Shown one piece after another: positions 4,797-28,387 of a DNA stretch of 35,551 nt. The position numbers and the translations under genes are program-made. The number at the start of each line of letters is the position of its first letter. The stretch's first letter is position 1. This DNA comes from Candidatus Latescibacterota bacterium (GTDB lineage: Bacteria; Latescibacterota; UBA2968): the NCBI GenBank assembly GCA_022823725.1, contig JAJEHL010000006.1:1-35551 (forward strand), written 5' to 3'. The notes beneath the pieces are model-generated. The model worked only from the letters and a program-made list of their open reading frames with translations, searched no databases and was not told where the DNA came from.

Positions 4797-5993
4797 TTAT
4801 TTTGCCTCTAACCGCAACCGCCTTGCTTCCGTGCGAATTTTATCCATCTCCATCTTCATCCTCACAATACCCTCCCAATGCGTATAATCTGGCGAATGGT
4901 GATACGCCGCCTTAAACGTGGTCGCGTGATAAAACTTGAACAACCTGAAAAACGCCTGTTCAATCTCCGACGTATTTTCGTACATCTGCTGCCCACCCAG
5001 TTCAAAAGCGTGCCCCACCACTGGATTGGCCGGACGGTCTTCGGGCATGGGATCCAGCGCATTTTCATCGTACAGTGCCTTAATCAACGCATAAGACTCC
5101 GCAACCAGCGCGTCTGCCTCGCGCTTAATCGCATCTGCGCGCTCGAGGCTCTCGCGAGAAAACCGATTGGAATGACACGGCGCACATACCTGCAACATCG
5201 CATTCCGATTCGCCTCAAACTCCTCTCTCGTCAACCGCTTCATCGCCAGATGCGGCAAAAAATCCTCCTCGAGCACCGCGCCCGTAAACACCGCACCCAA
5301 CCCGATATTGGGCACATGCCCGTGATCGCCATTGGGCATGTGGCACGTCACGCAACTCGGCGACTTCTCGGCATCTCTATCATTATAATATAGAACACCG
5401 TGAACACTCGTCTTATACGCCTCCATTACGGGATGATCCGGACCGCCGTGACAAACGGCACATGCCTCGGGTTCTCGCGCAAGCGCCGCACTAAATTCAT
5501 GACTCGGATGACAGGTATTGCACCCCCCCACGCTACCATCGGCAAACCGGGCACCAATGCTGTGACACCCCATACACCCCTCTTCTTGCATCGCGCGCGA
5601 CTGCGCCAAAAAACGCGCATCCGACAACGCGGCCAGTTCCGCATCGGCATGCCCACTCTCTGCAAATGCCTCGACCTCTTCTGCATGGCATTTGCCACAC
5701 ATACCCGCCGACACCTGCCCTCGAACAGCAAAAACCGTTTCGTGGTTCTCTCCATGACAATCCGCACACCCCACATTGGCTCTAAAATGGGCACTCTCGC
5801 GCCACTGTTTGTCCATGCCCGGATCGATATCCCGATGGCATCCTTCGCACGACTGGTCACTCTGGATACGCAACAAAAAACCCGGGTGTGCAACAAACCG
5901 AACCGCCTCTTCAGGCTGCAACAAATAAAACACGCCAAAGACGCAACCCAATACCAGCACGCTAACACCGACAATTTTCATCCAGACCTTCAC
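4797..5993 (-). CDS. HAO-like octahaem cytochrome c, membrane-anchored
   Basis: A 398-aa protein with an N-terminal transmembrane or uncleaved signal segment (about 6-24) and eight CxxCH haem sites, at Cys 49, 76, 99, 140, 158, 178, 214 and 270. The haem spacing and the C-terminal segment FKAAYHHSPDYTHWEG resemble the multihaem hydroxylamine-oxidoreductase family, whose members oxidise hydroxylamine or hydrazine or reduce nitrite or hydroxylamine. It is shorter than classical HAO (over 500 aa), so the reaction cannot be assigned. The C-terminal region holds Tyr residues, but whether one equals the haem-crosslinking Tyr of HAO needs an alignment. Its ATG overlaps the stop of the upstream octahaem-TPR gene (ATGA), and it is the last gene of the five-gene operon. 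It would act in the periplasm, tethered to the inner membrane. Confidence 0.85.
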   Translation of the reverse strand: MKVWMKIVGVSVLVLGCVFGVFYLLQPEEAVRFVAHPGFLLRIQSDQSCEGCHRDIDPGMDKQWRESAHFRANVGCADCHGENHETVFAVRGQVSAGMCGKCHAEEVEAFAESGHADAELAALSDARFLAQSRAMQEEGCMGCHSIGARFADGSVGGCNTCHPSHEFSAALAREPEACAVCHGGPDHPVMEAYKTSVHGVLYYNDRDAEKSPSCVTCHMPNGDHGHVPNIGLGAVFTGAVLEEDFLPHLAMKRLTREEFEANRNAMLQVCAPCHSNRFSRESLERADAIKREADALVAESYALIKALYDENALDPMPEDRPANPVVGHAFELGGQQMYENTSEIEQAFFRLFKFYHATTFKAAYHHSPDYTHWEGIVRMKMEMDKIRTEARRLRLEAK

Positions 5994-8755
5994 AATTCAC
6001 GCCCTCCCAATTCGCGCAACAAATCGCGCGCCTGCACATTGCCCGGCTCTCGCGCAATCACACGCTGCAAAACCGCAATCGCACTGTCTCGCTGCCCGCT
6101 TATGGCATAAGCCTGCCCCATAAACAACGCCAACCCCTGCGCTTCAGGATCCAGCACCCACGCCTGTCGATACACAGACAGCGCACCTTCTATATCGCCG
6201 CGCTCCTGTACAACTGTACCTAACACCGTAAGCGCGGGCACATAAAAAGGATCGACAATCAACGCATCGCGCATAAGGGATTCGGCAGCCTCCAAATCGC
6301 CCAAATCAGCGCGAATAAGCCCCTGCATCGCATACACATCAGCGCGGTTAGCCTGGTATTTTTTCGCAACCTCAAAATGCGGCAACGCATCTGCCAGCGC
6401 ACCCTGCACATAGACGCGGTGCCCAGTGGCAAAAGCCGAATCCGACTTTGCAATCCCCACATCTCGCGCCTGCCTGCCCAACCCAAATAATCCCGTACCC
6501 GCATCCTCCATTTCCAACGCCCTGCGGTATGCCGCGCGCGCCAATGCCCAATCGCCCGACAGCGCGTGTGCAGTCCCCTTTTCCACCCAATCGCCTATCG
6601 GCATCTCGTCCCACTCATAATCATCGCGCACCTCGCCATCCCCAGCCGAAAACGCCAATAACGCGAGTTGTCGAATCGCCGGCACATATTCCGGCGCAAT
6701 AGTAAGTGCGCGGCGATAGGCTTCAATAGCACCTGCGCGATCCCCACTGCCCCACAGCGCATTGCCCACAGCAGTATGCAACACGGGCGAACCATCGCGC
6801 ACACCATCAAAAGCAACCGCGGCATCTGCATAGCGCCCATGGTGCAACAGCAATGCACCTGCACGCAGTCGAGAAGTCAAATCGCTCTTCTCCCTGAGCA
6901 ATTCCCTCATCGCCTCAAAACGCTCCTGTTTTCCCTCCAACCGCGCCAGATCCGCCGCGGTCTCCGGATGCCGGGGATCTAACTTTGCAACAATCTCAAA
7001 TTCCCGCCTCGCATCTTCAAAAAGCCCCTGCGCTTCATAGACCTGCCCCAAACTCTCGTGAAAACCCGGATCATCGCCCTGCACGCCATACACCACATCG
7101 CGATGCTCTTCAAGCGCCCTGCGAAACGCATCGCCCACAGCAGAACCATCCGGCAAATAGCCAATATCCATCAGCGCGAACGGCGCTTGCACCCGCACAA
7201 TACGCGCCGAATCGGACAACGCATTCAAAAGCGCGGGCAAACCGCGCACATCGCCCAAACGCCCCAGCGAAATCGCCGCCTTCATCCGCACCATCGCATG
7301 TGAGTCATCCATCGCCTCAACCAGCGCCGGCAGCACACGCACATCCCCCAAATCGCCCAGCAAAGACGCAGCCGCTGCGCGCCACACCGCACTCTCATTC
7401 CCGTCATTTACCAACCGCGCCAACGGCACCACACCACTGCCCTTTTGCCCATTGGCAATCGCTGTTGTACGCGCCACAATTTCGTCCTGATAATCGCCAT
7501 ACCACTGCTTTGCCCACGACGAAGCCCATTGTGCGGACTTATCGCCGTGACACTGATTGCACGCATTGGGCACGCCATTGACCACCGTATTTTCCGGCGC
7601 AGGAGATGCAATGCGGTGATCCGTCAGATTCTCCCCCGTCACATAGTGATACGGCATGTGACACTGCACGCATTGATTGCCCACACTACCCGCGCGGTGA
7701 TGCCCATGTGCGACCGGATCGGCTGCAATGTCTTCATGACACGTTTCGCACAACTCCACGCCATTCCGATCCGCCACCAGATCGACATCGCGCGCTGTTC
7801 CGTGCGAATCGTGGCATGTCGTACACGTCAACTCGCCCTGAATATAACACGCACTCATCAAATGCAATGCCGCGGGATACAAATAAACCCGGGGCTGTCC
7901 ATCGGGATAAAAAATCGCCTCGTCATCTGGCAACACAAGAGAATAATAATCGTAAAAATTCTCCCCCGGCAAATACCCGGTCGCCACAATTTCCTTGGCC
8001 GCATGACACTGCGCACACACCTCAACAGCCCGTTCCTTATCCAGCGATCGCAACAACAGCAAATGCAACGGGGCATTGACTTGTCCGCGCGTCTCATCGT
8101 GTTTGCCCGACGGCCCATGGCACGCCTCGCAATCAATACTCAGACTGCCCACAGTCGTGCGATAAGACTGGGATGCCACATCGTAATGCTTTTGCACCCG
8201 GCTGGCATGGCAATCAAAACAGTGAAAATTCCAGGTGCGTCCCGCATTCGTCCAATAATAATAATCTTCTCTCGTCAAAGGTCGCGACTGAGCCACCACA
8301 CCTCCTTCTTGCGCATCGACCCAATCATTTGTCGCGCCATCGTGATACAGGGGCAACACCTGCCACCGCCCATTGGGAAAAGCCGTCAAATAGGCCTGAT
8401 GCTGCCGCTTGCCAATCGCGTAATCCACGCGATATGCCCCCACGCGCCCATCCTCATCCTCAGTCTGCATATAATACGCATCGCCCCTGCGAAACATGCG
8501 CGAACGCACACCGCCATACACATGGGACACATTGTCAAAATCGCCCACAATCGTCGAATCACTCGGCACAGTCATCGCGACACTGTGCAAACTCTGCCGC
8601 CACTCGGCATACTTGTCCGTATGGCAAGCCGCACACCGTTCCAACCCCGTAAACCCCGGCTCAGAAGCACGCACCAAATTGGGCACCTCGCGTTCCTGGC
8701 TGCACGACGCGAACATTAGCATCACCCATAAAATGTGAAATATCCCAAACCGCAT
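5990..8755 (-). CDS. Octahaem cytochrome c lipoprotein with HEAT and TPR repeats
   Basis: A 921-aa protein. Starting at ATG 8755 gives a lipoprotein signal with lipobox FASC (Cys 18), and AGGA lies 7 nt upstream; an in-frame start 14 codons earlier would bury this signal. Eight CxxCH sites occur at Cys 41, 179, 209, 247, 311, 336, 362 and 399, an arrangement like the cytochrome c554/NrfA-type modules seen in TPR-cytochromes. HEAT-like repeats follow at about 430-530 (ALVEAMDDSHAMVRMKAA), then TPR repeats to the C-terminus. It likely shuttles electrons in the periplasm and scaffolds partners through the repeats. A stop/start overlap with the HAO-like gene suggests that the two cytochromes form one electron-transfer unit. 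Proteins of this architecture are common in Planctomycetes and related phyla, but their reactions are mostly unknown. Confidence 0.9.
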   Translation of the reverse strand: MRFGIFHILWVMLMFASCSQEREVPNLVRASEPGFTGLERCAACHTDKYAEWRQSLHSVAMTVPSDSTIVGDFDNVSHVYGGVRSRMFRRGDAYYMQTEDEDGRVGAYRVDYAIGKRQHQAYLTAFPNGRWQVLPLYHDGATNDWVDAQEGGVVAQSRPLTREDYYYWTNAGRTWNFHCFDCHASRVQKHYDVASQSYRTTVGSLSIDCEACHGPSGKHDETRGQVNAPLHLLLLRSLDKERAVEVCAQCHAAKEIVATGYLPGENFYDYYSLVLPDDEAIFYPDGQPRVYLYPAALHLMSACYIQGELTCTTCHDSHGTARDVDLVADRNGVELCETCHEDIAADPVAHGHHRAGSVGNQCVQCHMPYHYVTGENLTDHRIASPAPENTVVNGVPNACNQCHGDKSAQWASSWAKQWYGDYQDEIVARTTAIANGQKGSGVVPLARLVNDGNESAVWRAAAASLLGDLGDVRVLPALVEAMDDSHAMVRMKAAISLGRLGDVRGLPALLNALSDSARIVRVQAPFALMDIGYLPDGSAVGDAFRRALEEHRDVVYGVQGDDPGFHESLGQVYEAQGLFEDARREFEIVAKLDPRHPETAADLARLEGKQERFEAMRELLREKSDLTSRLRAGALLLHHGRYADAAVAFDGVRDGSPVLHTAVGNALWGSGDRAGAIEAYRRALTIAPEYVPAIRQLALLAFSAGDGEVRDDYEWDEMPIGDWVEKGTAHALSGDWALARAAYRRALEMEDAGTGLFGLGRQARDVGIAKSDSAFATGHRVYVQGALADALPHFEVAKKYQANRADVYAMQGLIRADLGDLEAAESLMRDALIVDPFYVPALTVLGTVVQERGDIEGALSVYRQAWVLDPEAQGLALFMGQAYAISGQRDSAIAVLQRVIAREPGNVQARDLLRELGGREL

Positions 8756-8818
8756 AACACGTCCTGTTGATGCGCCAATAAAAATGTAAACCGTCACCCC
8801 ACAAGAGCAGTATCGCGT

Positions 8819-19565: not shown

Positions 19566-21911
19566 CTACGGACTCAGTTCCAACCTGCTCTGTAAATTAC
19601 CCACTATATCTTCCCAATCCATCAGCAGGGGATGGTATTCATCGGCGGCCCACAACTCGGACTGCGTGCGATAATTTGGACTGAGTGGATGCCCCGACTG
19701 TCCGCCTGCTGCCGTCGCCATACTCTGCGCCGGATTGCTCATATCCACCACCATCCGATAGGTCGAAAGCGACCCAACCTCAAACAGCTTGCCAAAATTA
19801 TACCCCGTCGCGCGCACGGTTCCCGTACTCCCCGACGACTCAAAAGGTCCCACATCAAACATCTCTGACAACGCCCCACCATCACTCAAGGGATGTCGAA
19901 AAGTCACCGTGTGCAAACGCCCCCATCGCCACTGCGATCTGCGCGGACCCACGCGGCGGCGCAGCCAATCCAGCGCGTCGCCCAATGCCGCATGCACCTC
20001 CGCATCCAGATCCCAGTCGTCCGGCGTCCAATCCAACGCCTGGCCCGTCAATACGCGGCGTGCCACACTCCCCCCCCGTCCCACCACCAATTGAATCACA
20101 TGCTCGGGAAACCGAACCCGCACCACCCGCCGCACCCAGTGCTCCCAAAATGTTGTAAACACCGTAGCGGCGACCGAATCAACCGAATACGCGCCATCCC
20201 AGCCGCGCAATAACTCACCCAGATCGCGCAAGCGTTTATTTCTCGATCTCAGTGCAATCTCTGCGACAATCGGCGCCAGGTCTTCCCCCCGCCCGTGGAC
20301 AACATCGGCGTGAATAGCACCCGTACTCTCCTGCGTATGCGTTTCCAATCCCTCAATACGCGCCCTGATCCTCCGAAACCGATACCCCTCCGACCACGAA
20401 CCCAGCGACAGATAAGGACCCCGACCACCCCATGGTGGATTATTTGCCGTCGCCACCCAATTGCGCTCGGGATCCACCAGATGCGGCAACTCGTCAAAAG
20501 CGTGCGGCGCGCCCCATTCGTGATCCGGATCATTTGCCAATCGAAATCCAAAATCCCCCACCTTGCGCGTTGGCACATGTCCCACCACGTGATATCCAAG
20601 CCTCCCATCGGAATCGGCAAACACAAAATTCAAAATAGGCATCGGCCATTTGGCGAGCGCATCCAGAACCTCTGCGACATTTTTCGACCGCATCAGCCCC
20701 AGCATTGCCTCAAAACCCGTTGTCGCCTCAGACCCTATCCAGCGCATAGACAGCACGGGCTGCTCCCCATCCCCTACAGCAGGCACAAACTCGTTGATTA
20801 CCGGACCGCGACGGGATCGGCGAATCACCAACTCATCCGCTGCGGAATCGCGCACCGGAATCGCCTGCTCCTCCACCTCAAACGGACGCCATGCATCCCC
20901 ATCTCGATATAAATTCTCATCCTCCTCCGCCACATCTTCAACATACAAATCGCGCACCGAAGCAGAGTGATTGGTCACGCCCCAAGCCGTATCGCGCGTA
21001 TGCCCCAGATAAATACCCGGCGTTCCCAAAAAAAACGCACCCACAGCATCCATACCCGGCGCACGCACCTGGGCTTGATACCACTGCCTGCACAAACTCA
21101 CATCATTGTGCGGATCCGTTGCCAGCACGGGTTTGCCATTCGCCGTCCGCTCGCCCCCAATCACCCAATTATTACTGCCAATCCCCGTATCGTATCCCCC
21201 CACACCTGCCGGTTCATCAGACGGAACAATGGTCTCTTCTGAAGCCTCTGTCGTCAAAAACAAATCGAACAAATCGGGAGACAAATGGCGTTTGGCCGCC
21301 TCATTCACCGCAACCCCACTCAGCCGCCCCGTCAGCATCCACCACCGCCATTTCCATATCGCAATCGAATCCACCACCGTCCACGGCGCGGGATCGTAAG
21401 CCAGCAAATCGAACTCAACACAACGCCGATCCCCCATCTCTTCCATCCACGCATTAATACCACCACCCAGCGACTGCAACACCATCTTCACCTCATCCGA
21501 CATCTCCGAAGCCGCCCCCTGTGCCGCGCGCGTCAAACCAATCGTTCGGTGCAATCGATCCTGCGCCAGACAATCCTTTCCCAAAATCTCCGACAATTGC
21601 CCGTGTGCCAACCGCCGCATATAATCCATCTGCCACAGCCGATCCTGCGCCATAGCATATCCCAGCGCAGTAAAACAATCCGCCATCGAAGCCGCCTCGA
21701 TATGCGCCACGCCCCATCGGTCGCGCAACACCGTCACCGGCTGATCAACCGGTGCTTTTACCATCTCCTCCGTCCCGGGCAATTTCTGACGCAAAAACCG
21801 CCGTTGAAAATCCCGAAACGACCGGTGCGAAATACCCAATTGATCGGCTGCCTCATCAACAGTTATCTCGCCGCGCAACGCCTGCATCAAACAAGTTTTT
21901 CGATCTGCCAT
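19566..21911 (-). CDS. Penicillin-acylase-family Ntn hydrolase with HTH-like N-terminus
   Basis: A 781-aa protein. Residues about 60-781 match the penicillin amidase/acylase family (S45): VLRDRWGVAHIEA, GYAMAQDRLWQMD, and the beta-chain start GIGSNNWV with the predicted nucleophile Ser 246, which is normally exposed by autocatalytic cleavage. It hydrolyses amide bonds such as those of acyl-homoserine lactones, beta-lactams or acyl-amino acids; the substrate is unknown. Unlike typical members it has no signal peptide. Instead residues 15-42 read ITVDEAADQLGISHRSFRDF, a helix-turn-helix-like segment. The start ATG 21911 follows a G-rich SD. It lies 21 nt after the sulfatase gene, same operon. 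Confidence 0.9.
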   Translation of the reverse strand: MADRKTCLMQALRGEITVDEAADQLGISHRSFRDFQRRFLRQKLPGTEEMVKAPVDQPVTVLRDRWGVAHIEAASMADCFTALGYAMAQDRLWQMDYMRRLAHGQLSEILGKDCLAQDRLHRTIGLTRAAQGAASEMSDEVKMVLQSLGGGINAWMEEMGDRRCVEFDLLAYDPAPWTVVDSIAIWKWRWWMLTGRLSGVAVNEAAKRHLSPDLFDLFLTTEASEETIVPSDEPAGVGGYDTGIGSNNWVIGGERTANGKPVLATDPHNDVSLCRQWYQAQVRAPGMDAVGAFFLGTPGIYLGHTRDTAWGVTNHSASVRDLYVEDVAEEDENLYRDGDAWRPFEVEEQAIPVRDSAADELVIRRSRRGPVINEFVPAVGDGEQPVLSMRWIGSEATTGFEAMLGLMRSKNVAEVLDALAKWPMPILNFVFADSDGRLGYHVVGHVPTRKVGDFGFRLANDPDHEWGAPHAFDELPHLVDPERNWVATANNPPWGGRGPYLSLGSWSEGYRFRRIRARIEGLETHTQESTGAIHADVVHGRGEDLAPIVAEIALRSRNKRLRDLGELLRGWDGAYSVDSVAATVFTTFWEHWVRRVVRVRFPEHVIQLVVGRGGSVARRVLTGQALDWTPDDWDLDAEVHAALGDALDWLRRRVGPRRSQWRWGRLHTVTFRHPLSDGGALSEMFDVGPFESSGSTGTVRATGYNFGKLFEVGSLSTYRMVVDMSNPAQSMATAAGGQSGHPLSPNYRTQSELWAADEYHPLLMDWEDIVGNLQSRLELSP

Positions 21912-21932: not shown

Positions 21933-23405
21933 TCACCGTTCGCGATAAGGATTGGAATCTGGATCGTACCACGCGAACAATCGCTCCTGCAAATCTGCAC
22001 AAATACCTGCAAAACCTCGATTATCAATCAAATTGATACACTCGCCCGGATCATTTTCCAAATCGTATAATTCATGTTGCGACCCTCCATCATTATAAAC
22101 GTACTTAAACCGTTCAGCCCGCACCATATACTGGGCTATGGGAGAACGCAACCCGTGCTCGGAAAACGCGACATCGGGACCTGATGTATCGGGATCGCGT
22201 ACAATACTGGCAAAACTCTGCGCATCCATTGTATCGCGAGCACCCTCAAAATCCATTAATGTCGTCCGATCGGGCGCCGACAACCCACACAACTCCGAAA
22301 GCGTGGGATACAGTCCGAAATATTCGGTCAAAGCAGAAGCCACCTGACCCTCTGGAAAACGAGAAGGGCAACTCACGATCAAAGGCACCTTCACCGCAGG
22401 TTCAAACATACAAAACTTCTGATACAACCCGTGCTCACCGGCCATCTCGCCGTGATCCGAAGTATATACCACAATCGTATCTTCTGCCAACCCCAACGCC
22501 TCCAGTCCATCCAGCACATGCCCGACGCAATAATCGACAAAAGATAGATTGCCCATATACCCCGCCTTATGCGCCCGAAGCCGCTTCTCACCCATACCCT
22601 GCGTCCTATCAATGCGTTTTTGAATATGTCCCGGATATTGCGTACTATCCCCCACCTCCACCATATCTATCGATCCCGGCGAAAACTGCTCTGCCCATTC
22701 GCGAGGCGGGTAAAAAGGCGGATGGGGCTTCATAAAACTCGCCACCAGAAAAAACGGCTGATCGCGATATTCGCGCATAAACTTCACGGACTCGCGCGCC
22801 ACAAACATATCCAGATGATCCTCGGCATCGAGCGGCGAAGCCGTACTCGAAAAATCCCACCGCGCCACATTGCCCGCCCAGGGACTTGCGCCATCCCACA
22901 GCGACGACATATCGGGAAACCCACTCCCCGTATCAAAAACCGAATCGAAAAACCCCTCGCCTATCGCGTGATTGGCAATCTCATTCGCATAATGCCCGAC
23001 CTTCGGCCCCAAATACATCAACCAATCGTTAATCGACAAATACGACGCAAACCCGTGATTATGTGCATCGTTAAAATGCATCTTGCCGATCAAACTGGTC
23101 AAATATCCGTGATCTGCAAAATGATGTGCCACCGTGCGATAGCGCCAATCCAACCGATCGCTATTGTTAATAGCCCCCGTATTATGTGCGTACAAACCCG
23201 TCAACAGCGACATACGCGAAGCCGTACACACCGGATAGGGGCAATAAGCATTCTCAAACCGCACCCCACGCGCAGCCACGCGATCTATCATCGGCGTAGG
23301 CACCGTATGATTACCCGCACACGTCATCCAATCCGCGCGATGCTGGTCGGACATCAAAATGAGAACATTGGGACGATTATTATAATCCAAGATAGACCTC
23401 CTCAT
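21933..23405 (-). CDS. Type I sulfatase (alkaline-phosphatase superfamily)
   Basis: A 490-aa protein without a signal peptide. Metal-binding NVLILMSDQHR (Asp 20, Gln 21) and the formylglycine motif VCTASRMSLLTG (Cys 60, Arg 64) are present; SDHGEMAGEHGL gives the second metal site. The motif has Ala in place of the usual Pro (CxAxR). Cys 60 would need conversion to formylglycine; the SUMF1 protein at 8819-9661 lacks the needed cysteines, so another enzyme must do it. ATG 23405 is 3 nt after the rhodanese stop with GAGGAG 9 nt upstream; a TTG at 23390 with AGGAGG is an alternative start. It hydrolyses a sulfate ester, possibly of a marine polysaccharide or small molecule (inference). Confidence 0.92.
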   Translation of the reverse strand: MRRSILDYNNRPNVLILMSDQHRADWMTCAGNHTVPTPMIDRVAARGVRFENAYCPYPVCTASRMSLLTGLYAHNTGAINNSDRLDWRYRTVAHHFADHGYLTSLIGKMHFNDAHNHGFASYLSINDWLMYLGPKVGHYANEIANHAIGEGFFDSVFDTGSGFPDMSSLWDGASPWAGNVARWDFSSTASPLDAEDHLDMFVARESVKFMREYRDQPFFLVASFMKPHPPFYPPREWAEQFSPGSIDMVEVGDSTQYPGHIQKRIDRTQGMGEKRLRAHKAGYMGNLSFVDYCVGHVLDGLEALGLAEDTIVVYTSDHGEMAGEHGLYQKFCMFEPAVKVPLIVSCPSRFPEGQVASALTEYFGLYPTLSELCGLSAPDRTTLMDFEGARDTMDAQSFASIVRDPDTSGPDVAFSEHGLRSPIAQYMVRAERFKYVYNDGGSQHELYDLENDPGECINLIDNRGFAGICADLQERLFAWYDPDSNPYRER

Positions 23406-23408
23406 ATA

Positions 23409-24236
23409 TCACTTCTCCTCAGGCACTTCGACCGGCAAATCCAGCCGGTCACCCCACTCTTTCCACGACCCGATATAATTTCGGACCTTTTCATAACCCA
23501 GCAACCGCAATGCCAGGTACGTTTGGGAAGAGCGGTACCCACCCTGTCAGTAAGGCACGATTTCCTTATCGGGCGAAATACCCACCGCCTCGTACATCGC
23601 CCGCAACTCATCTGCTGGCTTAAACGCCCCCATCTCATCCAGATTGTTCACATACTCAACATGCACAGCACCTGGAATAGCCCCCCCTCGCGCAGCCCGC
23701 ACATTGCGCCCGAAATACTCATCGTCACCGCGCGTGTCCAGAGGCACAACATCCTCGCGTCCCAAAAGACCATTTAGAACATCGGCCCCCATGTGACGCC
23801 CCGGCACCGCAGATGCGACAAACTCCGCGGGCGCGGCCTCCTCACAATCCGTCGTCAATTCATAGCCCATAGCCTTCCACGCATTGCATCCCCCATCCAG
23901 CACACGCACATCGGGATGACCCAGATATTCACAAATCCAAAAACCGCGCGCCGCGCGCACCCCGGAATCGTCTTCGTACCAGACCACCGTCTTATCCGTA
24001 CCAATACCCCGATTGCCGAACAAATACCCGAGCATCCACATAAACGCATCAAAAGCCTGTTCGCGGGTATCGTTCAAACTGATTGAATAAAGATCCAGAT
24101 GAAGCGCACCCGGAATATGCCCGGCGACATACGCATGTGTCGGTCGCGTATCCACAATGCAAACATCGGCATCGCTCTCATACAAATCCCGCGGCGAAAT
24201 CAACAACTCGGGATTCACATACCCTTTATCGCTCAT
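23409..24236 (-). CDS. Selenocysteine-containing two-domain rhodanese (sulfurtransferase)
   Basis: A 275-aa protein read through an in-frame TGA at 23549-23547 (residue 230). ATG 24236 ([10 protein letters not shown]) has AAGGAGGTG just upstream. The N-terminal rhodanese domain (about 8-135) is a non-catalytic copy: its loop reads [12 protein letters not shown] with Asp instead of Cys. The C-terminal domain reads EIVPY[18 protein letters not shown], then [18 protein letters not shown]. This matches the sulfurtransferase active loop YCQxGxRA and the conserved GSWxEWG tail, with TGA exactly at the catalytic Cys. The frame stays open for 45 codons after the TGA to a normal TGA stop. Selenium-dependent persulfide transfer is therefore inferred. 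A nonsense mutation is unlikely because the tail is fully conserved in sense. It is the first gene of an operon with a sulfatase and an acylase. Confidence 0.87.
23513..23546 (-). promoter_or_regulatory. Candidate SECIS region of the rhodanese gene
   Basis: Directly after the TGA, CAGG and CCTG (4 bp) enclose an inner GGG/CCC stem; an alternative fold pairs GGTAC with GTACC around a 14-nt loop. Neither is a textbook SECIS, so only the region, not a structure, is proposed. Confidence 0.3.
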
Positions 24237-25533: not shown

Positions 25534-28338
25534 TCAAACTACCGGATGCATCGCGTGCCAATCCGTAGCCTGTTCATAGGCTCGTGCAACAGCCAGAATC
25601 GTCGTCTCATCGTATAAATTGCCCAAAAAAGTCAACCCTCTCGGCGTACCCTCGGCAAACCCACATGGCAAAATAACCGCGGGATGTCCCGTCAAATTAG
25701 TCACAGCCAAACTCGTCCTTCCACCGCGCGGCACCAGCACCGCATCCCAGTCTTGCATCACCTGCGCCACATCGCGCATCAACAGAGCACGCAAACGCTG
25801 CGCCCGCAAATACTCCACAGCCGTCACCGCGCGCGCCGCTCGAAAAGTATTGGGCCACGCACTCTTATCCGCTTCCGTCATCACATCCAGTTCTCCGCGC
25901 AGGGTTGCATCGTCAAACATCGCGGAAGACTCAACCCGAAGCACCATCGCAATCGCATCCGTCGGATAATCCGGCAGCGAAACGGGTTGTAAATCAGCAC
26001 CTAAACCGCGCATCACCTCCAGCGCGGCGGCATAAACACCAGCGGGATCTTCGCCATCTGCCTCCTTCTGAAACTCAGACGCCAGATACCCAATCCGCAA
26101 CCCGGATAAATCCACATCGGGACACCAGTTAAACGGCGCATCCACCACCGAACGATCCTTTCCATCTGGTCCACAAATCGCGTGAAACACAGCAGCACAA
26201 TCCTCTACACTGCGGCACATAGGCCCCAATTTATCCATTGTCCAGCTCAGCGCCATCGCGCCATAACGACTCACGCGCCCATAAGTCGGGCGCAACCCCA
26301 CCACGCCGCATGTGTGACTGGGCGACACAATAGAACCCTGCGTTTCAGACCCGATACTGAACCCCACCAAACCCGCCGCGGTTGCCGCGCCAGACCCGGC
26401 CGACGACCCGCTCGATCCCGTATCGGTATCCCACGGATTGCGCGTCATACCCTCAAACCACGTCGGTCCCGACGCCAGCGCACCCAGTGACAACTTGGCG
26501 ACCAGCACAGCGCCCGCCTGTCTCAATTTTTTAACCACACTCGCATCCTCATTGGGCACTTGATCTCTAAACGGCGTGGCACCCCACGTCGTGCGAACAC
26601 CCTTTGTACTCAACAAATCTTTCGCACCCCAGGGAATGCCGTGCAACGGACCTCTATAATCGCCCCTCGCGATCTCCGCCTCAGCGGCTCTTGCCTGCTC
26701 CATCGCCAGATCTTCTGTCAGCGTAACCACACACTTCAATTTCTCCCCATAACGCGCAAGGCGATCCAGGTACAACCGCGTCAACTCAACCGGTGAAATC
26801 TCCCTCTGCTCAATCAAACGCGCAAGAGAACTCGCTGGCAAAAAAGCCAGTTCATCATCGGCATCTGGCCGCGCAATATCTGCGTCACTCAGCGCAAACG
26901 GCTGCTGCTCGCCCTCGGGCACATCCCCCGGCACAAACACCAGCGGAGGCTCGACATCATATCCCACCGACACATTGCGCAAAGCGACATATTGCCGCCC
27001 CTGCTTTTCAATTTGCCCCCGCACCTTTTGCCATTGCGCCCTGGAAAACGGCAACCGGGCAACATCTGCCAACCCCGATACCGCGCGATCCACCAGTGCA
27101 TCTTCGCGCTCGGCAACCTCATCCAAAAACACATGCCGAATTTCCGTATCGATATCCGGGCTACACCCCTCACCTATTTCACCGTGCGTGTACAAAAGCT
27201 GGGGAACCCCAACCTCGTTCTCGGATGTCGCACAACGCTCCAGACTCGGCAACCAATCCGACACCGTCTCATCCTCTGGCGAAACCCGGTATGCCCGCCA
27301 GGTCTCCCCCACATCCCGCGATACAAACAACACAATCGCATTTGTCGGATCGGCCCAATGCCCACCGCGCTTACACACCACGCCCGCCGCGTACAGCACC
27401 CCATCCTTTGACACACTCAACACACACCGATCAGACATCGCACATGGCCCAAAAACTTTCTCTGCCAAAGGCAAAAAAGACTGGCACTCCCACTTCCCCC
27501 TTTGCCAGCGATACAAAAACGTCTCGTCAAACTCGCCCTCTCGTCGGTTCAACGTAAAAAGTGCCACATCGCCCCCAAAGGCCACCACATTGCCAATGCG
27601 AACATCAAACCCATCGCTGTATTCAATTACACACGGAGAATCTGGCGTCACGGGCAAGTCGAGCCTTTCCCCCGCCACTGTCTCCCATGTCTCACCCCAA
27701 TCGCGCGACCGCATCATACCAAAACCGCGCCCCTTTGTATCTCCCGGATTATCCTCATTGCTCCGCGCAAGGTGAAAAGACAAATACAGCACATCCCCTT
27801 CAATATGGATACAATTCTCAAGATGCACATAAGCCGACGGTCCCAGAGGATCGACCAGCTTCACCGGCGTTGTCCAATCCCCATCCACGGACCGCTTCTG
27901 ATAAAACAGACCCCAGGGTCGCTCGCGCTGATATGCCCCCCGAAAACACGCATGCAACACATCGCGCGCATCACATACCAGACTGGGATAAGTCGCATTC
28001 ACACCGCCAAAAGGCGGGAGCATTTTCCACGCGGACGTATCATTGGGACGTACACTCACCGCGTGTTGCATCGGATTGTGATGCGGGCCAAACGCGAGAT
28101 AGAGATACCCCTTTGAATCCATCGTCATTGCCGCGCCCGCGTGATTATCAACCCCATCCGCCACAAAAACTGGATCGCTCCACGTTTTCGCCTCGTGACA
28201 ATAGGTTGCCGCATACGTCTTGTGAATCTGATCCAGCCACACCACATGCGTCTTGCCCTCGTGCGTAATAATTTTATTACTCATCCCATACGCCGTGCCA
28301 CGCGTCGAACCGGTTTTTGACAAAACAGTATAGTCCAT
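25534..28338 (-). CDS. BNR-repeat / amidase fusion protein
   Basis: A 934-aa protein. Residues 1 to about 455 form a BNR-type beta-propeller (HVVWLDQIHKTYAATY, SRDWGETWE, SRDVGETWR), like the BNR_4 family found in glycan-related proteins. Residues from about 490 to the end form an amidase-signature hydrolase: catalytic Lys in PWGAKDLLSTKG, the Gly/Ser-rich GSSGSSAGSGAA and the nucleophile loop GSETQGSI. Both halves look intact. ATG 28338 follows GAGAGG; an in-frame GTG at 28377 is possible. No signal peptide is seen. It hydrolyses an amide bond; the beta-propeller could bind the substrate (inference). Its start faces the SDR gene at 28420, so the 80-bp gap holds divergent promoters. Confidence 0.88.
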   Translation of the reverse strand: MDYTVLSKTGSTRGTAYGMSNKIITHEGKTHVVWLDQIHKTYAATYCHEAKTWSDPVFVADGVDNHAGAAMTMDSKGYLYLAFGPHHNPMQHAVSVRPNDTSAWKMLPPFGGVNATYPSLVCDARDVLHACFRGAYQRERPWGLFYQKRSVDGDWTTPVKLVDPLGPSAYVHLENCIHIEGDVLYLSFHLARSNEDNPGDTKGRGFGMMRSRDWGETWETVAGERLDLPVTPDSPCVIEYSDGFDVRIGNVVAFGGDVALFTLNRREGEFDETFLYRWQRGKWECQSFLPLAEKVFGPCAMSDRCVLSVSKDGVLYAAGVVCKRGGHWADPTNAIVLFVSRDVGETWRAYRVSPEDETVSDWLPSLERCATSENEVGVPQLLYTHGEIGEGCSPDIDTEIRHVFLDEVAEREDALVDRAVSGLADVARLPFSRAQWQKVRGQIEKQGRQYVALRNVSVGYDVEPPLVFVPGDVPEGEQQPFALSDADIARPDADDELAFLPASSLARLIEQREISPVELTRLYLDRLARYGEKLKCVVTLTEDLAMEQARAAEAEIARGDYRGPLHGIPWGAKDLLSTKGVRTTWGATPFRDQVPNEDASVVKKLRQAGAVLVAKLSLGALASGPTWFEGMTRNPWDTDTGSSGSSAGSGAATAAGLVGFSIGSETQGSIVSPSHTCGVVGLRPTYGRVSRYGAMALSWTMDKLGPMCRSVEDCAAVFHAICGPDGKDRSVVDAPFNWCPDVDLSGLRIGYLASEFQKEADGEDPAGVYAAALEVMRGLGADLQPVSLPDYPTDAIAMVLRVESSAMFDDATLRGELDVMTEADKSAWPNTFRAARAVTAVEYLRAQRLRALLMRDVAQVMQDWDAVLVPRGGRTSLAVTNLTGHPAVILPCGFAEGTPRGLTFLGNLYDETTILAVARAYEQATDWHAMHPVV

Positions 28339-28358
28339 AACACAACCTCTCGGTATTG

Positions 28359-28387
28359 TTGCGCTCTTACCCTTCACCTGCTATAAT
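28359..28387 (+). promoter_or_regulatory. Promoter candidate for the SDR gene
   Basis: A perfect TATAAT (28382-28387) lies 17 nt after TTGCGC (28359-28364), 33 nt before ATG 28420. The -35 box matches consensus in only three positions. Confidence 0.4.

What the first reader, a model, noticed from the sequence alone, without database searches (positions are those of the whole stretch)
23409..24236. Rhodanese with TGA (selenocysteine) at the catalytic Cys
The active loop reads VPY-TGA-QGGYRSS where the sulfurtransferase family has YCQxGxRA. Translation in the same frame continues through the conserved VRNYxGSWxEWG tail to a proper stop 3 bp before the sulfatase start. Normal annotation would end the protein at the TGA and lose the catalytic part. 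A Sec rhodanese implies Se-based persulfide or selenide chemistry. Sec-containing rhodanese-like proteins have been predicted in some bacteria, but this operon with a sulfatase and an acylase is not known to me.
Basis: partly seen in the sequence, partly recalled or inferred. Interest (0 to 1): 0.88.

Follow-up and report, generated by a model that had tools for sequence, protein, structure and literature searches.

The report
Selenocysteine rhodanese with a long stem-loop
This gene very probably makes a sulfur-carrying enzyme whose catalytic cysteine is replaced by selenocysteine; that kind of protein was already catalogued from seawater DNA, but here it appears as a large family in little-known bacteria, with an unusually long RNA stem-loop after the recoded stop codon.

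Summary
On the minus strand, 24236-23409 encodes 275 residues interrupted only by TGA at codon 230 (23547-23549), where tandem-domain rhodaneses have the catalytic Cys. The genome holds selA, selB, tRNA-Sec and a selD that is itself a selenoprotein gene. All 110 homologous loci read have TGA, TGC or TGT there (91, 16, 3), and the tail after TGA is under strong purifying selection (median dN/dS 0.02-0.06). Sec insertion is close to certain by comparison; no experiment shows it.

The kind is known: Sec forms of COG2897 rhodaneses were reported from Sargasso Sea and GOS data. What I did not find in print: 74 non-redundant full-length genes, mostly Latescibacterota and Poribacteria; Cys two residues before Sec in 59 of 74; and an 82-nt stem after UGA whose outer helix is kept in all 74 at both free wobble pairs. 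My scan found no canonical bSECIS at -7.5 kcal/mol (0 of 74), though it does in 13 of 15 selD genes read from Sec-rhodanese genomes. The sulfatase/acylase neighbourhood is genus-level. Sulfur transfer through Se-S is inferred from family and fold.

The parts
23409..24236 (-). CDS of the tandem-domain Sec rhodanese, 275 aa plus TGA stop (23409-23411)
   Evidence: (PF00581, 124 bits, two stretches)
23547..23549 (-). in-frame TGA read as selenocysteine, residue 230, at the catalytic Cys position
   Evidence: aligned with a Cys of A. vinelandii RhdA (1e0c) (that it is the catalytic Cys of RhdA is recalled)
23832..24209 (-). N-terminal rhodanese domain (about residues 10-135, borders approximate), no Cys at the active-loop position, presumed non-catalytic
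23451..23783 (-). C-terminal catalytic rhodanese domain (residues 152-262), active loop U-Q-G-G-Y-R
23454..23535 (-). long SECIS-like stem-loop, nucleotides 15-96 counted from the U of UGA; base of stem 11 nt after UGA
   Evidence: inner part not settled, and weak in the window's own genus
23528..23535 (-). helix H1, 5' arm (nt 15-22)
23454..23461 (-). helix H1, 3' arm (nt 89-96)
21933..23405 (-). downstream sulfatase (PF00884), 3 bp after the rhodanese stop; neighbour, not part of the conserved unit
19566..21911 (-). penicillin-acylase-like protein (PF01804); neighbour

Best explanation
A tandem-domain rhodanese (COG2897/SseA/RhdA type) whose catalytic residue is selenocysteine, inserted at UGA by SelB and tRNA-Sec of the same genome with the help of a long stem-loop that begins 11 nt after the UGA. 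Shown by comparison: Sec coding, the machinery, and the conserved RNA helix. Inferred: the enzyme takes sulfane sulfur from a donor such as thiosulfate on the selenolate of Sec230 (enzyme-Se-SH, a selenenyl sulfide in place of the usual cysteine persulfide), held by the UQGGYR loop and the inactive N-terminal domain, and passes it to a thiol acceptor; in the 59 of 74 Sec forms with Cys two residues before Sec that thiol could resolve a Se-S bond. My odds: Sec insertion 0.96; sulfurtransferase with a Se-S intermediate 0.65; the long stem acts as the SECIS or as part of it 0.7.
For: selC (RF01852, 68.5 bits, ARAGORN tRNA-SeC), selB (396 bits), selA (576 bits, next to selB), selD (367 bits, next to selC, itself with TGA in GGUASK) in the genome. 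Sec or Cys at 230 in 110 of 110 loci read. A SelB match over the family cut-off in 20 of 21 Sec genomes. Tail dN/dS 0.02-0.06. Synonymous-shuffle z of the 108 nt from UGA: mean -3.12 in 74 Sec rows against -0.14 in 18 Cys rows and -0.9 to 0.19 in six windows elsewhere in the same genes (37 of 74 rows). Wobble pair 18-93 is C-G 50, U-A 17, U-G 4 in 71 distinct Sec rows, 21-90 is U-A 63, C-G 8, no mismatch; in Cys rows 18-93 pairs in 7 of 18 and 21-90 in 14 of 18. AlphaFold model pLDDT 94.2, best Foldseek match RhdA 1e0c, E 8.5e-25, TM 0.84. U-x4-R is the six-residue loop of sulfurtransferases (recalled).
Against: No protein, mass-spectrometric or enzymatic evidence. The canonical bSECIS model is not met. 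The window's own genus departs from the inner and upper stem; the window's folding z is -1.8, weaker than the mean. Independent covariation events are few: 6 independent row pairs for 18-93 (about 4 concordant, 0 opposed), 3 of 3 concordant for 21-90, about 2 of 8 for 39-72, no support from 42-69; sign tests do not reach 0.05. On 41 rows two of five measures (pairs with a two-sided change, further pair types) do not exceed shuffles, and a slide by +1 gives as many two-sided cells, though fewer cells paired. Five of the eight H1 pairs fall on first or second codon positions and are fixed by the protein. No neighbour is conserved enough to name donor or acceptor. One Sec genome, G005 (430 contigs), showed no SelB at the 1e-70 limit used.
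Confidence: 0.8

Rival explanations
1. The TGA is a true stop or a sequencing error and the gene is a pseudogene or a truncated protein.
For: TGA is a stop in table 11; the mechanical ORF ends there.
Against: The same codon in 74 non-redundant genes, from differently named MAG sets; conserved open tail with dN/dS 0.02-0.06; the catalytic loop would be lost; Cys is the only alternative seen.
Confidence: 0.02
2. TGA is decoded as another amino acid (reassigned code or programmed readthrough by a near-cognate tRNA).
For: Readthrough of UGA by other tRNAs is known (recalled).
Against: tRNA-Sec, SelA, SelB, SelD present; the gene's own terminator is TGA; aligned sense codons are TGC or TGT only; a SelD selenoprotein gene in the same genome.
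Confidence: 0.02
3. Sec is inserted, but the enzyme is a thiol or selenol oxidoreductase (for example through a Cys-x-Sec selenenylsulfide) and not a sulfurtransferase.
For: Cys at -2 in 59 of 74 Sec forms against 1 of 18 Cys forms; most predicted selenoproteins are taken to be redox enzymes in the review PMC9312934 (passage).
Against: The window's own genus has Pro at -2, three Poribacteria rows have Ser; tandem rhodanese fold closest to RhdA and to mycobacterial and Thermus rhodaneses; the -2 residue may simply follow lineage.
Confidence: 0.2
4. Selenium delivery: the protein carries selenium as a perselenide to selenophosphate synthetase.
For: The E form of rhodanese binds selenium 1:1 in vitro and a role in supplying selenium for selenophosphate is proposed (passages of PMC9369223).
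Against: A selenoprotein as supplier for its own amino acid would be circular, though SelD here is one too; not next to sel genes (selC and selD on C25, selA and selB on C31, the window on C39); Cys forms occur in 3 of 9 genomes without a SelB match at the limit used.
Confidence: 0.08
5. The long stem is a by-product of codon choice or of another RNA function, and a short, poorly conserved bSECIS does the work.
For: The published model puts the apical loop 16-37 nt from UGA (PMC13188914 section 5); the Sargasso paper reports bacterial SECIS elements for its new families, this COG included (passages); a short hairpin right after UGA also has a mean z of -1.66 in Sec rows.
Against: Canonical hairpins occur at chance level (24 of 74 rows with any, 29% in shuffles, 0 at -7.5 kcal/mol), whereas the same scan finds them at -7.5 in 13 of 15 selD genes read from Sec-rhodanese genomes; both free wobble pairs of H1 are kept in 74 of 74. 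My scan allows no bulges, so an irregular short element could escape it.
Confidence: 0.3

Closest known systems
Rhodanese-related sulfurtransferase COG2897 selenoprotein family (Sargasso Sea 2005; GOS 2008; 'Rhodanese-like domain-containing protein form 4', UxxG, in PMC13188914)
   Same: COG2897-type rhodanese, Sec in place of Cys, motif U-x-x-G (here UQGG).
   Different: Known from few marine metagenome sequences (3, first count column: 8 under cd01449 and 1 under COG2897); here 74 non-redundant genes, with Cys at -2 in most and a long non-canonical stem. Their sequences could not be fetched, so whether the sets are one is not tested.
Azotobacter vinelandii RhdA (PDB 1e0c)
   Same: Tandem rhodanese fold, Cys at the aligned position, 34% identity in the Foldseek alignment, TM 0.84.
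   Different: Cys and loop CQTHHR there, Sec and loop UQGGYR here.
NF041203 rhodanese-related (seleno)protein and TsoB (NF045694)
   Same: Rhodanese domains with Sec; the former carries a CxU motif (PMC13188914 table passage).
   Different: Scores of 32.5 and 27.7 bits against cut-offs of 115 and 805: not members. NF041203 is a model of 126 positions, so of one domain by its length.
Bacterial SECIS consensus (bSECIS)
   Same: Stem-loop inside the coding region just downstream of UGA; GG of a Gly codon at the start of the apical loop in the consensus.
   Different: Apical loop about 49 nt from UGA, not 16-37; stem-loop of 82 nt.

Membership tests
Bacterial selenoproteins | Sec machinery (selA, selB, selC, selD) in the genome | tested here: met
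Bacterial selenoproteins | Sec/Cys pairing in homologues with conserved flanks | tested here: met
Bacterial selenoproteins | canonical bSECIS: apical loop 3-9 nt, G in its first two positions, 16-37 nt from UGA, energy at most -7.5 kcal/mol | tested here: not met
   0 of 74 Sec rows, ungapped stems only; positive control selD 15 of 19 contexts, 13 of 15 in Sec-rhodanese genomes. The review itself says that some selenoprotein genes fail this model
Bacterial selenoproteins | conserved RNA structure just downstream of UGA | tested here: met
Bacterial selenoproteins | selenium in the protein | not testable with these tools
   needs 75Se labelling or mass spectrometry
COG2897 (SseA-type) Sec rhodanese | two rhodanese domains, Sec in the C-terminal active loop, UxxG | tested here: met
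   the COG assignment itself was not run, no COG library is at hand
COG2897 (SseA-type) Sec rhodanese | sequence clusters with the published Sargasso/GOS members | not tested
NF008557 3-mercaptopyruvate sulfurtransferase (equivalog) | score over curated cut-off 250 bits | tested here: not met
   105.7 bits
Thiosulfate sulfurtransferase activity | sulfur transfer from thiosulfate to cyanide or a thiol | not testable with these tools
   needs an enzyme assay

The most novel reading that the evidence does not exclude
This rhodanese family, in Latescibacterota and Poribacteria, uses a long (82-nt) class of bacterial SECIS with the loop about 49 nt from the UGA, while at least the Latescibacterota use ordinary short GGU-loop elements in selD, so one SelB serves two architectures; consensus-based SECIS finders would miss such genes. 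The enzyme would run sulfur transfer through a Se-S intermediate, with a CxU resolving pair in most members.
Probability: 0.4. Interest if true: 0.65.

Novelty: new variant of a known kind. Interest (0 to 1): 0.48.

Why it matters
It turns a catalogue entry known from a few marine sequences into a full-length family with named lineages, Cys counterparts and a tree, so that the effect of Sec on sulfur transfer can be measured on natural Sec/Cys pairs. If the long stem is the SECIS, it widens the rule by which selenoprotein genes are found and asks how one SelB reads two kinds of element. Standard gene callers would be expected to end these proteins at the catalytic residue.

Tried and rejected
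RNAalifold on stretches of up to 66 nt found little; the signal came when 99-108 nt were used. The short hairpin directly after UGA (mean z -1.66 in Sec rows, -0.46 in Cys rows) was my first candidate; it shares nt 15-21 with the long stem, which is far better supported (outer pairs about 0.9 against 0.07 in shuffles), so I set it aside. Rfam: nothing in the window at gathering threshold. A covariance model of the element finds only this gene in the genome (150 of 1653 first-look candidates scored), so no sign of a general element there. Operon logic: a sulfatase of one sequence cluster is next on the same strand in 5 of 7 same-genus loci (L064, L066-L068, L070) and in none of the other 63 Sec loci, three of which (L075, L077, L121) have it further down on the other strand; in 46 of 70 Sec loci the gene just upstream on the same strand belongs to one cluster, whose one scanned member is a MATE transporter. 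These counts rest on ORFs of 80 aa or more and cut contigs, so they are lower bounds. Neither points to a pathway. SelB presence does not separate Sec from Cys forms (20 of 21 against 6 of 9). Papers, by listing only: Poribacteria + selenocysteine (2 papers), Latescibacter + selenoprotein (2), selenoprotein + marine sponge + symbiont (7) show nothing on this family in title or abstract start; none of those was opened. COG2897 + selenoprotein gives 4 papers, of which three were searched for passages and PMC7435645 was not opened. Searches are further listings.

Rows dropped before counts: L050 (split gene) and identical coding sequences (110 to 92 rows); rows identical over 105 nt (74 to 71); I gave 44 of the 74 Sec rows or their copies in the second locus set (41 distinct). 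In one search the motif search counted 26 selD loci (20 with any hairpin, 16 at -7.5); by eye 19 of these are the true Sec site (15 at -7.5) and 7 are not (L031, L144-L146, L150, L168, L170); L159, L167 and L171 gave no site. Of the 19, 15 come from genomes with the Sec rhodanese (13 at -7.5; the misses are L151 and L155), three from genomes without a tandem-domain match (L148, L149, L165) and one from a Cys-form genome (L147). The true sites of L031 and L150 are and were not put through the scan; no Poribacteria selD was read. Of only the best 30 matches were fetched as loci; weaker matches with a TGA (G111:C25, G158:C1) were not read at position 230.

Full report
What is there. The window's minus strand carries, from 24236 to 23409, a frame of 275 residues with TGA at codon 230 and TGA as terminator. 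Pfam finds rhodanese (PF00581) in two stretches, 124 bits. The nearest solved protein by sequence is RhdA of Azotobacter vinelandii, 1e0c, E 3.4e-43, with residue 230 aligned on a Cys (its catalytic Cys, as I recall). An AlphaFold model from 31 sequences has mean pLDDT 94.2 and pTM 0.92; Foldseek ranks 1e0c first (E 8.5e-25, TM 0.84), with mycobacterial and Thermus rhodaneses next. The N-terminal domain has no Cys at the loop position (EDDSGVR), as in other tandem rhodaneses with one active site (recalled).

Is the TGA selenocysteine? The genome (5.3 Mb, 98% complete) has a tRNA-Sec (68.5 bits; ARAGORN anticodon tca), SelB (396 bits over a 242 cut-off), SelA next to SelB, and SelD next to tRNA-Sec. 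SelD has its own in-frame TGA in GGUASK, and 27 of 28 genomes searched, the window's included, have a TGA inside the selD match. Homologues of the rhodanese came from 194 genomes (76 with a match; best 30 loci read) and from the GTDB contig collection (108 found, best 80 kept). Codon 230 is TGA in 91, TGC in 16 and TGT in 3 of the 110 loci, no other codon. The sets overlap; 92 coding sequences are different, 74 with TGA and 18 with a Cys codon. Record titles say Latescibacterota or Poribacteria for most TGA rows, Gemmatimonadota or Gemmatimonadetes for some and Nitrospinota for one; titles of Cys rows say mostly Acidobacteria or Vicinamibacteria. The 40 codons after TGA show median dN/dS 0.023 in the genus and 0.046 over all Sec rows. 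A SelB match over the family cut-off is in 20 of 21 Sec genomes; the miss, at the 1e-70 limit I set, is G005 with 430 contigs. Two of the 20 matches cover only about 344 of 581 profile positions (G009, G016). SelB is also in 6 of 9 genomes with the Cys form, so it does not discriminate.

History. On a tree of 92 rows, 74 Sec rows and 2 Cys rows (L055, L048) lie on one side of a branch with support 100/93; the label needs 3 changes, of which well-supported branches force 2. The exact places of L055 and L048 are weak (93/56, 81/37). Both keep the RNA helix described below (8 of 8 and 7 of 8 pairs); of the other 16 Cys rows, 15 have 2 to 6 of 8 and L058, outside the clade, 8 of 8. The likeliest story is one gain of Sec and two returns to Cys with a remnant of the RNA element; independent gains are not excluded.

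The RNA. The published bacterial SECIS model asks for an apical loop of 3-9 nt with G in the first two places, 16-37 nt from UGA, and -7.5 kcal/mol or lower, and the review notes that some genes fail it (PMC13188914 section 5, read). My scan for ungapped hairpins of that kind finds 24 of 74 Sec rows with any, as in synonymous shuffles (29%), and none at -7.5; Cys rows 8 of 18 with any. The same scan on selD finds GGU or GGUC loops 17-20 nt from UGA: of 19 sites that I judge correctly placed 15 reach -7.5, and of the 15 that come from genomes with the Sec rhodanese 13 do; these are all from the Latescibacterota side, no Poribacteria selD was read. Base-pair probabilities over 99 nt against synonymous shuffles then showed a long stem: nt 15-22 with 89-96 (0.64-0.91 against 0.04-0.08; among the 30 strongest pairs listed), inner pairs 39-43 with 68-72 and 45-52 with 58-65, loop at about 53-57. 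Over 108 nt the mean z is -3.12 in 74 Sec rows (all negative, -6.02 to -1.17) and -0.14 in 18 Cys rows; six other 108-nt windows of the same genes give -0.9 to 0.19 (37 of 74 rows). Helix H1 (15-22/89-96) is 99.8% paired in 71 distinct Sec rows and 65.3% in Cys rows; the wobble-wobble pairs are 18-93: C-G 50, U-A 17, U-G 4, and 21-90: U-A 63, C-G 8. In the Cys rows 18-93 pairs in 7 of 18, 21-90 in 14 of 18. Over the whole structure 87.9% of cells pair and 41 cells change on both sides, against at most 87.0% and 21 in 100 shuffles of the 3' letters; a slide by +1 gives 54.6% and 40. On the session's pair counter with 41 distinct rows: 86.1% paired and 29 two-sided cells against 84.4% and 10.9 in shuffles (0 of 500 reach either), while the number of pairs with a two-sided change (5 against 4.9) and of further pair types (15 against 16.2) does not exceed shuffles, and a slide by +1 also gives 29 two-sided cells at 54.4% paired. 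Limits: relatedness makes the events few (6 and 3 independent row pairs, none opposed, not significant alone; 39-72 and 42-69 give little); five of eight H1 pairs are fixed by the protein; the inner stem is poorer (75.9% in 45-52/58-65), and the window's own genus folds its inner part differently. I take H1 as real and the exact architecture as open.

Neighbourhood. In the window the rhodanese is followed by a sulfatase and a penicillin-acylase-like protein. The sulfatase follows on the same strand in 5 of 7 same-genus loci and in none of the other 63 Sec loci. In 46 of 70 Sec loci one cluster of proteins precedes the gene on the same strand (from about 14 nt overlap to about 245 nt before the start); its one scanned member is a MATE-type transporter. 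Neither tells the substrate.

How it probably works. From the family (recalled: six-residue C-x4-R loop for sulfurtransferases, seven for Cdc25-like phosphatases), a UQGGYR loop fits sulfane-sulfur transfer. Sec would be ionised at neutral pH (recalled) and would form Se-S instead of S-S. That rhodanese can hold selenium in vitro is in PMC9369223 (passages), so a selenium-delivery role is thinkable but less likely. Cys at -2 in 59 of 74 Sec rows, against 1 of 18 Cys rows, offers a resolving thiol, yet the window's genus has Pro there.

Known or new. Sec forms of COG2897 rhodaneses: PMC1088965 (passages; 3 sequences), PMC2398784 (passages; 8 under cd01449 and 1 under COG2897 in the first count column), PMC9312934 (passages), PMC13188914 (abstract, passages and sections 5 and 9; form 4, UxxG). 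In the main text of the last, Poribacteria and Latescibacter occur 0 times. No NCBIfam model reaches its cut-off on the protein. So the protein is of a known kind; the breadth, the CxU form of this subfamily and the long stem are what I did not find in the passages that I read.

Noticed in passing
L031 (G000 C25:33721-34644) and L009: selD is itself a selenoprotein gene beside tRNA-Sec, with a short GGU-loop hairpin 20 nt after its UGA.
   Followed up: yes
L055/L123 and L048: Cys-form rhodaneses placed inside the Sec clade that keep the outer RNA helix (8 of 8, 7 of 8 pairs): probable remnants of a lost SECIS.
   Followed up: partly
G111:C25:25435-26187 and G158:C1:3145574-3146416: More distant rhodanese paralogues with one in-frame TGA each; position of the TGA not read.
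   Followed up: no
window 25534-28377 (-): One 947-aa frame joins BNR-repeat-like and amidase domains, an unusual fusion; a similar long protein lies near the rhodanese in other loci (cluster 8).
   Followed up: no
window 5990-8797 (-): Long frame with multihaem cytochrome-like, HEAT and TPR domains together.
   Followed up: no
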